From positions 1 through 15,018 of the forward strand of contig JAKAIH010000011.1 of the NCBI GenBank assembly GCA_021825225.1: DNA of 15,018 nucleotides, read 5' to 3'. A model generated the notes under the pieces. It saw only the letters and a list, made by a program, of their open reading frames with translations, was not told where the DNA came from and did not search any database. This stretch comes from Pseudomonadota bacterium (lineage in GTDB: Bacteria > Pseudomonadota > Gammaproteobacteria > Burkholderiales > SG8-39). The position numbers and the translations under genes were made by a program. Shown in pieces: positions 1 through 13,334 of the stretch (within the stretch, counting starts at the first letter, position 1; every line of letters begins with the position of its first letter).

Positions 1-1233
1 GCGTTCGCGCAGGATCAGGCGCGCCTCCTGCCGCTTGCGCTCGCCGGAGACGGCGGCCTCGCGCCGCCCCAGCACCTGCACCAGATGCCAGCCGAACGGC
101 GATGCGAAAGGCTCGCTCACCTGCCCCACCTTGAGGCTGTTCATCACGTGCTCGAATTCGGGCACGGTATCGCCGGGATAGACCCAGCCCAGATCGCCCC
201 CCTTGCTCGAGGACGAGTCGTCGGAATTCAGCTTGGCCAACTCGCCGAAATCGGCGCCGGCGAGTATGCGTTCGCGCAGATTGTTGAGCTTGCGCTTGGC
301 GTCGGCTTCGGACACGAGTTCGCTGGTCTTCACCAGGATGTGGCGCACGTGGGTCTGCTCGACCATCGCCGGCAGGCCGCCGCCGCGGCGATCGATCAGC
401 TTGAGCAGATGGAAGCCAGCGGGACTGCGGATGATGCCGCTCACCTCGCCCGGCTTCATGCGGTCGAGCGCCTGGGTGTACAGATCCGGCAGCCGGTCGC
501 GCGCGCGCCAGCCCATGGCCCCGCCCTGCAAGGCGTCCGGCGCGTCGGAATACCCGACGGCCAGCTTGGCGAAATCCGCGCCCTGGCGCAATTGCGCCAG
601 CACCTGCTCAGCGCGCTCGTGCTGCCGGTTCACCTCCTCCGGGCTTGCCTGCTCGGGCAGGCGCAGCATGATTTCGCTCAGATTGAATTCGGTCGCCGCA
701 GAGGGCGATTGGGCCTGCTGGCTGAGGAAATAGTCGATCTCGTTGTCGGTGACCACGATGCGGTTGTCCACTTCGCGTTCGCGCAATCGCGACAGCAGGA
801 TCTCGTTGCGCATCTCCTCGCGGAACTTGTCGAACTGAATGCCGTCGCGCTCCAGGGCCTGGCGAAACTGGGTCAGCGACATCTTGTTGCGCTCGGCAAC
901 GCGCGCCACCGTCCGGTCCAGCTGCAGATCGTCCACGCGCAGCGCCGTCTCCCGCGCCAGCTGCAGTTGCAGCCGGTCCATGATCATGCGCTCCAGCACC
1001 TGTCTTTGCAGCTGCTCGGCCGGGGGCAGCGGTGTCCCCTGCTGGCGCAACTGCTGCGTCACGGTCTTCACCCGTTCGGCAAGCTCGGCTTTGGTGATCA
1101 CCTCGCTGTTGACCACGGCGACGATACGGTCCACCAGCGCCACGCGATTGGACGCCGCCGTCTGCGCGAGCGCGCCGCCGCTAGCTAGGGCCAATACCGC
1201 GGCGGCAAGCCACGCAGAAATGAAAAATCGCAT
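1..1233 (-). CDS. surA: Periplasmic chaperone / peptidyl-prolyl isomerase SurA (3' end outside window)
   Basis: SurA escorts unfolded outer-membrane proteins, including LptD, through the periplasm to the BAM complex. I translated the minus strand from the ATG at 1233. It gives 411 codons without a stop up to base 1, against roughly 430 residues for the family, so only a short C-terminal piece is missing. Residues 1-23 form a signal peptide (MRFFISAW, an Ala/Leu-rich core, then ALAQ). The SurA N-terminal helical domain follows, beginning with the typical VDRIVAVVNSEVIT segment (about 34-47). Two parvulin domains lie at about 181-283 (FNLSEIMLRLPE to GFHLLKLIDRR) and 294-392 (THVRHILVKTSE to GWHLVQVLGRR). 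The start lies 7 bases after the lptD stop, and a weak GAG ribosome site overlaps the end of lptD, so the two are almost certainly co-transcribed. Identification is firm. Confidence 0.97.
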   Translation of the reverse strand, partial: MRFFISAWLAAAVLALASGGALAQTAASNRVALVDRIVAVVNSEVITKAELAERVKTVTQQLRQQGTPLPPAEQLQRQVLERMIMDRLQLQLARETALRVDDLQLDRTVARVAERNKMSLTQFRQALERDGIQFDKFREEMRNEILLSRLREREVDNRIVVTDNEIDYFLSQQAQSPSAATEFNLSEIMLRLPEQASPEEVNRQHERAEQVLAQLRQGADFAKLAVGYSDAPDALQGGAMGWRARDRLPDLYTQALDRMKPGEVSGIIRSPAGFHLLKLIDRRGGGLPAMVEQTHVRHILVKTSELVSEADAKRKLNNLRERILAGADFGELAKLNSDDSSSSKGGDLGWVYPGDTVPEFEHVMNSLKVGQVSEPFASPFGWHLVQVLGRREAAVSGERKRQEARLILRER

Positions 1234-12179: not shown

Positions 12180-13076
12180 ATGAACCCTGTCGCAGTCAAA
12201 GACTATCTGCTCGGCCTGCAACAGCGCATCGTCGCCGCGCTGGAACAACTCGACGGCAAACCGTTCCGGGAGGACCGCTGGGACCGTCCCCAGGGCGGCG
12301 GCGGCATCAGCCGCGTGATCGAGGAGGGCGGGCTGTTCGAGCGCGGCGGCGTGAATTTCTCGCACGTGCAGGGCGCGGGACTGCCGCCTTCGGCCAGCGC
12401 CTCGCGCCCCGAGCTGGCCGGTCGCGCCTGGGAAGCGATGGGCGTGTCGCTGGTGCTGCACCCGCGCAACCCGTATTGCCCGACGGCGCACATGAACGTG
12501 CGCTTTTTCGTCGCGACCAGGGAAGGCGCCGCGCCCGCCTGGTGGTTCGGCGGCGGCATGGATCTCACACCGTATTACGGCTACGCGGAGGATGCCGAAC
12601 ACTTCCATCGCAGCTGCAAGCTCGCGCTGGAACCGTTCGGCGGCGGCCATCACGCGCAATTCAAGGCCTGGTGCGACCGCTATTTCTTCCTCAAGCACAG
12701 GAACGAGCCGCGCGGCGTAGGCGGTATCTTCTTCGACGACTTCAACCAGCCCGACTTCGACACCTGTTTCGCGCTGATGCAAAGCGTGGGCGACCATTTC
12801 ATCGAGGCCTACCGCCCTATCCTCGAGCGGCGCAAGGACATGCCTTTTGGTGAGCGCGAGCGCGACTTCCAGGCCTACCGCCGCGGACGCTACGTCGAAT
12901 TCAATCTGGTCTACGACCGCGGCACTCTGTTCGGCCTGCAGTCGGGCGGCCGCACCGAAGCGATCCTGATGTCGCTGCCGCCGGTGGTGAAATGGCGCTA
13001 CGACTGGAAGCCCGAGCCGGGCAGTGCCGAAGCCGCGCTCTACCGCGATTTCCTCGTCGCCAGGGACTGGGTTTAG
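12180..13076 (+). CDS. hemF: Oxygen-dependent coproporphyrinogen III oxidase HemF
   Basis: HemF converts two propionate side chains of coproporphyrinogen III to vinyl groups using O2, giving protoporphyrinogen IX for heme synthesis in the cytoplasm. The 298-residue protein is full length for the family. Signature stretches include [20 protein letters not shown] (39-58), [17 protein letters not shown] (94-110, with conserved histidines), [15 protein letters not shown] (121-135) and [11 protein letters not shown] (179-189). The C-terminal part has [16 protein letters not shown] and [18 protein letters not shown], as expected. The ATG at 12180 matches the usual N-terminus; no strong ribosome site is visible. 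The gene is followed by a 325-base gene-free stretch rather than another coding sequence. Confidence 0.98.
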
Positions 13077-13142: not shown

Positions 13143-13197
13143 ATAAGCCAAGACGCCTGGCGATGACAATAATCAAAGTGCCGTCCTGCGGAATGTG

Positions 13198-13203
13198 CAT
13201 AAT
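13198..13203 (+). promoter_or_regulatory. Candidate -10 element for the structured RNA after hemF
   Basis: CATAAT matches the sigma-70 -10 consensus at five of six positions and would start a transcript near 13210, only a few bases before the closing stem that begins at 13215. No good -35 is found at 16-18 bases upstream. The position relative to the stem is the main support. Confidence 0.35.
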
Positions 13204-13209
13204 CGAAAC

Positions 13210-13334
13210 CGAGTAGACGCCCGCTTGGGTGGTCTTCCCTAACTTGACTGATCCCGTGGGATCGCGAAAAGCGGATGCATCCTCCTGACAGCAGGAGGAT
13301 GCAAGGGGAGACCTCCCAAGCGGGCGTTTTCATT
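13210..13334 (+). ncRNA. Candidate small structured RNA of unknown family, about 125 nt
   Basis: Two long arms close the whole element. ACGCCCGCTTGGG (13217-13229) pairs perfectly with 13315-13327 and extends by a G-U and an A-U pair to 13215/13329. After one T-T mismatch (13230/13314), 13231-13240 pairs with 13304-13313, including one G-U pair. Inside are a hairpin GATCC/GGATC (13250-13263), a small CGC/GCG stem around GAAAA (13263-13273) and a perfect 12-base-pair hairpin TGCATCCTCCTG/CAGGAGGATGCA with loop ACAG (13276-13303). Both wobble pairs are G-U only when read on the plus strand, and TTTT follows the 3' arm there, so I assign the plus strand. It lacks the SRP RNA GGAAGCAGC loop and I could not match it to 6S, tmRNA, RNase P RNA or a riboswitch. 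A terminator-like or mobile palindromic element is the alternative. Confidence 0.5.

What the first reader, a model, noticed from the sequence alone, without database searches (positions are those of the whole stretch)
13210..13334. Unassigned, highly structured small RNA candidate after hemF
A closing helix of about 25 base pairs with a single T-T mismatch encloses a branched core with a perfect 12-base-pair hairpin. This is far more ordered structure than expected in a 325-base spacer. Both G-U pairs are compatible only with plus-strand RNA, a -10-like CATAAT lies at the right distance upstream, and the 3' arm runs into TTTT. The fully closed shape recalls stable housekeeping RNAs such as 6S, but I could not match conserved 6S, SRP or riboswitch sequences, so it may be a lineage-specific RNA.
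Basis: partly seen in the sequence, partly recalled or inferred. Interest (0 to 1): 0.72.

Follow-up and report, generated by a model that had tools for sequence, protein, structure and literature searches.

The report
New oxygen-switched, tightly folded small RNA
Beside hemF in an uncultured betaproteobacterium sits what looks like a gene for an uncatalogued, tightly folded small RNA whose promoter carries a likely binding site for FNR, the oxygen-sensing switch, so it is probably made when oxygen runs out; what it controls is still unknown.

Summary
The structure is real and far beyond chance (z -11.35). No Rfam family matches. It is single-copy in its genome. DNA and covariance-model searches gave eight further members, all in the window's order, in three families. 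G-U against A-C counts (26 to 4) favour the plus strand. The new finding is upstream: in 9 of 9 an FNR-type box lies 21-22 nt before an nAnnnT -10 hexamer, the class II FNR geometry. The box has at most one mismatch in 6 members and two in 3; random anchors do as well in 0.65% and 1.1%. The genome encodes an FNR. Best reading: a free-standing ~120-nt sRNA, induced on oxygen loss, that probably regulates mRNAs. It is not 6S; an ordinary 6S lies elsewhere. Transcription, FNR dependence and targets are untested.

The parts
13163..13176 (+). FNR/ANR-type box ATGACAATAATCAA (1 mismatch to TTGAY-N4-RTCAA), centred about -40.5 from the predicted start
   Evidence: perfect TTGACAATAATCAA at the same place in the nearest relative G013
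13198..13203 (+). -10 hexamer CATAAT, 21 nt after the box
   Evidence: nAnnnT at 21-22 nt in 9 of 9 members
13210..13332 (+). predicted small RNA (start inferred from the -10, end roughly from the 3' arm and TTTT 13327-13330; neither end mapped)
13216..13240 (+). P1, 5' strand of the closing helix (24 pairs, U13230 unpaired against U13314)
   Evidence: 12 of 24 pairs with changes on both sides
13250..13263 (+). P2 hairpin (13250-13254 with 13259-13263)
   Evidence: 3 of 5 pairs with changes on both sides
13276..13303 (+). P3 hairpin, 12 bp in the window copy, 7 pairs in the consensus; strands read CCUCCUG and CAGGAGG
   Evidence: 3 of 7 pairs with changes on both sides
13304..13328 (+). P1, 3' strand of the closing helix; the TTTT run (13327-13330) begins in its last two pairs; possible weak terminator
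   Evidence: terminator scan negative
12180..13076 (+). hemF, oxygen-dependent coproporphyrinogen oxidase, upstream neighbour
   Evidence: NF003727, 448 bits
13402..14691 (-). convergent downstream neighbour, glycogen-debranching/invertase-like protein
   Evidence: PF12899, PF06202

Best explanation
The locus is a free-standing gene for a plus-strand small RNA of about 120 nt. When oxygen falls, FNR binds the box at 13163-13176 and, as a class II activator, recruits RNA polymerase to the CATAAT -10; the RNA starts near 13210. It folds into a closed, branched shape (P1 closing helix around P2 and P3), with its 5' end buried in P1, whose 3' strand runs into a short T-run. The closed fold should make the RNA long-lived. 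The RNA then acts in trans, most likely as a ProQ- or Hfq-assisted base-pairing regulator that lowers mRNAs unneeded without oxygen, as FnrS does in enterobacteria; C-rich anti-Shine-Dalgarno-like strands in P1 and P3 are the candidate pairing sites. SHOWN by computation: conserved structure with compensatory change, strand, conserved promoter geometry, an FNR gene in the genome, single copy. INFERRED: transcription, FNR dependence, the exact ends. GUESSED: the chaperone and base-pairing mechanism (about 0.45 by itself).
For: Fold z -11.35. Each of the eight other members folds below all 200 of its shuffles (z -4.69 to -8.13), with P1 and P3 in every minimum-energy fold. On nine members 95.5% of cells are paired, 18 of 38 pairs have changes on both sides, and the covariation score is 0.450 against 0.236 shuffled (0 of 500) and at most 0.191 when slid. 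G-U 26 against A-C 4 favours the plus strand. FNR-type box with nAnnnT after 21-22 nt in 9 of 9; box mismatches 0 in 4 members, 1 in 2, 2 in 3. Put through the same selection, random anchors in these loci give box plus hexamer in 0.65% (at most 1 mismatch) and 1.14% (at most 2) of 20,000 draws. The own genome encodes an FNR passing NCBIfam NF008365 (254.2 bits, cut-off 228) with an N-terminal CSNCSLREMC motif. In same-genus G005 the hemF/debranching-enzyme spacer is about 78 nt with neither box nor RNA. In all 6 members of families f1 and f36 the next listed gene downstream is convergent. A class II FNR site at -41.5 is the published arrangement of E. coli fnrS, and one is predicted for a gonococcal anaerobic sRNA (PMC3032703 passages).
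Against: No expression data. The three f22 members have a degenerate box (TTGCC-N4-GGTCAG or close, 2 mismatches), and within 160 nt upstream each has another site as good or better further away, so another regulator or another site may act there; the nine are also not independent (three clades). One structure measure, further pair types, does not exceed shuffles (151 of 500). The minimum-energy fold of the P2 arm differs between members (G450 forms an extra hairpin). Distribution is patchy: 4 of 98 genomes of the family, 7 of 399 of the order, though large searches used stricter filters. Free stretches are short and little conserved, which does not fit a classical accessible seed. No standard terminator; the T-run is TTT or less in G038, G217 and G397. 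ProQ and Hfq in this genome were not searched for.
Confidence: 0.68

Rival explanations
1. A protein- or ribosome-binding RNA (functionally 6S-like): the rigid closed fold is itself the active part and titrates a protein or the translation apparatus during oxygen limitation, without pairing to mRNAs.
For: Helices, not loops, are conserved; 6 of 24 P1 pairs and 3 of 7 P3 pairs never vary in nine members. In the six f1 and f36 members P3 pairs a Shine-Dalgarno-like strand (CAGGAG; CAGGGG in G031) with a C-rich one. In G425 (f22) a gene for an S30AE/cold-shock-domain protein (hibernation-factor type) lies about 5.7 kb away.
Against: No protein partner is known. No Rfam 6S match, and the genome has its own 6S. 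The S30AE neighbour was seen in one genome.
Confidence: 0.2
2. A cis-acting leader or attenuator, or only a bulky bidirectional terminator between convergent genes.
For: In the three f22 members the model match ends 8-20 nt before the listed pncA start on the same strand. In the window it lies between convergent genes.
Against: In 6 of 9 members no same-strand gene follows directly. Read on the minus strand the helix is not followed directly by a T-run. A terminator needs neither covarying P2 and P3 nor an upstream FNR-type box.
Confidence: 0.07
3. A palindromic mobile element (MITE or REP type) or a remnant of one.
For: Long inverted arms; different neighbours in different genomes; presence/absence at the same hemF junction.
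Against: One full-length copy in the own genome and one full place listed in each of the other eight, plus a partial one in G038. No match to the window copy in plasmids or phages at E 0.1 and no pattern match in viral contigs. Compensatory change and a conserved promoter are not expected.
Confidence: 0.05

Closest known systems
FnrS (Escherichia coli and other enterobacteria)
   Same: sRNA under a class II FNR site centred at -41.5 (PMC3032703 passage); represses functions dispensable without oxygen (PMC8139620 passage)
   Different: No match to any Rfam family. A 2011 paper states that no fnrS homologue had been seen outside Enterobacteriaceae (PMC3032703). A closed branched fold is not described for it in the passages seen.
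AniS / gonococcal fnrS (Neisseria)
   Same: Betaproteobacterial sRNA under FNR control, made in oxygen limitation (cited title in PMC7272453); predicted -10 plus class II FNR site for the gonococcal one. That AniS and gonococcal fnrS are the same RNA is recalled.
   Different: [quoted passage not shown] here one helix encloses the whole RNA
PaiI (Pseudomonas aeruginosa)
   Same: Anaerobically induced, 126 nt, affects denitrification; absent in anr and narL mutants (PMC5703892 title and passages)
   Different: NarL site in its promoter; no extensive structure besides the terminator by RNAfold and probing
6S RNA (RF00013)
   Same: Long closing helix around an open core (recalled)
   Different: About 120 nt, branched core; no Rfam match; the genome has a separate 6S
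Structured sRNAs bound by minimal ProQ in Neisseria meningitidis
   Same: ProQ binds mainly highly structured RNA; levels of five selected sRNAs including AniS are lower without it (PMC7272453 passages)
   Different: Binding untested here

Membership tests
FNR-controlled small RNA (functional class, FnrS/AniS-like control) | FNR box about -41.5 with a -10 at class II spacing | tested here: met
   9 of 9 with a box and nAnnnT at 21-22 nt; mismatches 0-1 in 6 of 9, 2 in 3 of 9 (these three have other sites as good or better further up); control. Start sites are predicted, not mapped.
FNR-controlled small RNA (functional class, FnrS/AniS-like control) | genome encodes an oxygen-sensing FNR | tested here: met
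   for the own genome only; oxygen sensing is inferred from the family
FNR-controlled small RNA (functional class, FnrS/AniS-like control) | transcript induced without oxygen, lost without FNR | not testable with these tools
   no expression data
FnrS as a sequence family (Rfam) | match to a curated Rfam model | tested here: not met
   gathering; relaxed: searches (E up to 10; E up to 1), which list only HepC_CRE (11.3 bits, gathering 140) and mir-598 (outside the RNA)
6S RNA (RF00013) | match to the 6S covariance model | tested here: not met
   the 6S model instead hits C39:1211-1403 at 63.1 bits
Structured RNA under selection | compensatory base changes in homologues | tested here: met
   18 of 38 pairs, 48 of 332 cells, 0 of 500 shuffles; alignment fitted to the model, kinship not corrected
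Mobile palindrome (MITE/REP) | many dispersed copies per genome | tested here: not met
   7 rows, of which one is full-length, three are its own arms and three are 14-22-base matches (genome 84.7% complete)
Riboswitch or leader | directly upstream of a gene on the same strand in most members | tested here: not met
   3 of 9 only (f22, before pncA-pncB)

The most novel reading that the evidence does not exclude
An uncatalogued RNA family whose rigid closed fold, rather than an exposed seed, is the active part: an oxygen-switched RNA that binds a protein or the ribosome (SD/anti-SD-like hairpin in six members, hibernation-factor-type gene in the same locus of one carrier) and helps shut cells down on oxygen loss.
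Probability: 0.18. Interest if true: 0.8.

Novelty: new variant of a known kind. Interest (0 to 1): 0.57.

Why it matters
FNR-controlled sRNAs let bacteria turn off oxygen-dependent functions after FNR has turned on anaerobic ones. From the passages I saw and from recall, few are described outside enterobacteria, Neisseria and Pseudomonas, and those whose shape was given are largely open. A closed, strongly covarying one in uncultured betaproteobacteria would extend the class, give Rfam a candidate family with a ready model, and offer a well-defined RNA for asking how a molecule with almost no free sequence regulates anything.

Tried and rejected
Rfam at gathering and relaxed thresholds: no family near its gathering score. 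Plasmid and phage searches with the window copy: none. Pattern scan of viral contigs: none. Pattern scan of genome contigs: 8 stretches, of which 4 match the model (one partial) and 4 do not. A sample of 369 genomes of the class (some of the same order) gave the window's own genome only. One model hit, G852:C267, was read and rejected as an unrelated hairpin. The model's small third helix (2 pairs, 77.8% of cells paired) is probably wrong; an alternative GCUY:RAGC helix was not better than shuffles in single sequences, so it is not claimed. Coding: two of three frames hold stops in every member; the third is open in 4 of 9 (G031 and the three f22 members), so no shared frame. One search used 7 of 9 members, because minus-strand hits of window and L014 would have entered the alignment; one search uses 9 of 9. 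The partial second G038 copy (L015/L027) was left out of the pair and promoter counts. Both alignments were fitted to the model, which leans them towards it, and shuffles do not correct for kinship. Literature: search listings; no description of this RNA seen there. Of papers, only passages were seen. One search found none of the neighbour-gene names I tried in one paper on the Burkholderia low-oxygen locus, so a link is not claimed. No target prediction was made.

Full report
The stretch 13210-13334 folds at -80.7 kcal/mol, z -11.35 against 200 shuffles. No Rfam family reaches its gathering score in the window, and a relaxed scan of the spacer gives only a chance hit, HepC_CRE at 11.3 bits against a gathering score of 140. 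The window is one contig (C445) of a 3.1-Mb draft genome, 84.7% complete, in which the element has one full-length copy.

Relatives. A DNA search found the element in 4 of 100 related genomes, the own genome included. A covariance model built from these four (R1) found the same four in 98 genomes of the family; in 399 genomes of the order it found G000, G013 and one distant hit, G176 (E 6.2e-6). A DNA search with the G176 element found G217; 2 of 3 genomes of that family carry it. A second model (R2) added three members in a third family, f22. A third (R3) gave 7 of 399 in the order, all known by then. In a sample of 369 genomes of the class R2 found only the window itself. These large searches used stricter filters that lose some weak matches. 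In f22, 4 of 28 genomes gave a hit, one of which (G852) is an unrelated hairpin. The total is nine genomes in three families. By equal contig lengths, G013, G031 and G038 correspond to the MAG records JAJZPQ010000010, MEQX01000107 and JAOUFA010000251, titled Proteobacteria or Betaproteobacteria.

Structure is under selection. On the nine-member alignment A10, 95.5% of 332 cells form standard pairs; 18 of 38 pairs and 48 cells show changes on both sides; the covariation score is 0.450, shuffles averaging 0.236 with 0 of 500 reaching it, slid controls at most 0.191. One measure, further pair types, does not exceed shuffles (151 of 500). P1, P2 and P3 each carry double changes (12 of 24, 3 of 5, 3 of 7); the model's 2-pair third helix carries none and is probably wrong. 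Seven members gave the same picture. Even the outer P1 arms are rewritten: GCCCG/CGGGC in f1 reads GGGGG/CCCCC in f22. Each of the eight other members folds better than all of its shuffles; P1 and P3 appear in each of these folds, while the P2 arm is drawn differently in some (G450 most clearly), so a three-way junction is the consensus, not proven for each. G-U cells (26) outnumber A-C cells (4), which would be G-U on the other strand. No reading frame is open in all nine; one is open in 4 of 9.

The promoter. A plain sigma-70 scan finds none. In the -35 place lies a CRP/FNR-type box. In all nine a site starts 50 to 60 nt before the helix. It is perfect (TTGAY-N4-RTCAA) in G013, G031, G176 and G217, has one mismatch in G000 and G038, and two in the three f22 members. 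Against this: within 160 nt upstream, G176 and G217 have a second perfect site, and the f22 members have other sites as good or better. In 9 of 9 a hexamer with A at position 2 and T at position 6 follows after 21 nt (7 members) or 22 nt (2). Such a hexamer stands at either spacing at 6.2% of random positions and after 42 of 246 boxes with at most 2 mismatches in the held loci, which overlap and include the nine. Random anchors put through the same choice of box give box plus hexamer in 0.65% (at most 1 mismatch) or 1.14% (at most 2) of cases. The spacing puts the box at about -40.5 to -41.5 of the predicted start, the class II position (PMC4886647 passage). The own genome encodes an FNR: L037 856-1671, NF008365 at 254.2 bits, cut-off 228, closest solved sequence an FNR-type regulator, with the CSNCSLREMC motif (that these cysteines hold the iron-sulphur cluster is recalled).

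Neighbourhood. Of 14 genomes of the genus, 12 gave a hemF match; the 420 nt after hemF were read in all 12, and only G000 and G013 carry the RNA. G005 keeps the hemF/debranching-enzyme junction with a spacer of about 78 nt and neither box nor RNA. Of the ten without the RNA, one (G008) has a site with 1 mismatch, 369 nt downstream. Elsewhere the neighbours are Hsp20 (G038), TPM-domain genes (G031), PEP synthase and a nitroreductase (G176, and by likeness G217), and pncA-pncB with CBS/archease genes (f22). The downstream gene is convergent in 6 of 9 and on the same strand in 3 of 9. So this looks like a gene of its own, gained or lost with its promoter.

How it probably works. FNR without oxygen activates the promoter; the RNA is stable because its 5' end is locked in P1; it then regulates in trans. 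I favour chaperone-assisted pairing, because known FNR sRNAs act on mRNAs (FnrS; AniS is called Hfq-dependent in a cited title) and because C-rich strands of P1 and P3 resemble anti-Shine-Dalgarno sequences. The near absence of conserved free sequence argues the other way and keeps a protein- or ribosome-binding role open. Nothing here shows transcription.

Comparison with the known. By control it looks like FnrS and AniS. By sequence it matches no Rfam family, and in shape it differs from gonococcal fnrS, described as a stem-loop, an unstructured region and a terminator. It is not 6S. I saw no description of it in the search listings, which cover only openly licensed PubMed Central papers.

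Noticed in passing
L015 (G038:C95) about 371-484, minus strand; compare L014 195-317: The G038 draft holds a second contig with the same Hsp20 gene beside a copy whose promoter and 5' half match but whose 3' half does not. Broken allele or assembly chimera; not resolved.
   Followed up: partly
L026 and L036, upstream of the RNA (L082 6858 and 6922; L083 6321 and 6385): G176 and G217 each have a second perfect FNR box 64 bp further upstream, near the start of a divergent nitroreductase-like gene.
   Followed up: partly
L084 7102-13970 (G425): Beyond pncA-pncB the G425 locus holds an S30AE/cold-shock-domain protein, a Cpn60-like protein and a ribonucleotide-reductase C-terminal piece, with perfect FNR boxes at 12673 and 13419 just upstream of the Cpn60-like and S30AE genes: it looks like an oxygen-limitation locus.
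   Followed up: partly
L043, L044, L045, upstream of the RNA: The box in the three f22 members is TTGCC-N4-GGTCAG or close to it, alike among them but off the FNR consensus; it may belong to another CRP/FNR-family regulator.
   Followed up: no
L043, L044, L045, RNA region, third frame: One frame through the RNA is open and similar in the three f22 members, but not in most others.
   Followed up: no
G000 C97, C23, C74, C490: The own genome has five Crp-family HTH matches; the proteins at L040 and L041 are FNR-like but below the NCBIfam Fnr cut-off.
   Followed up: partly
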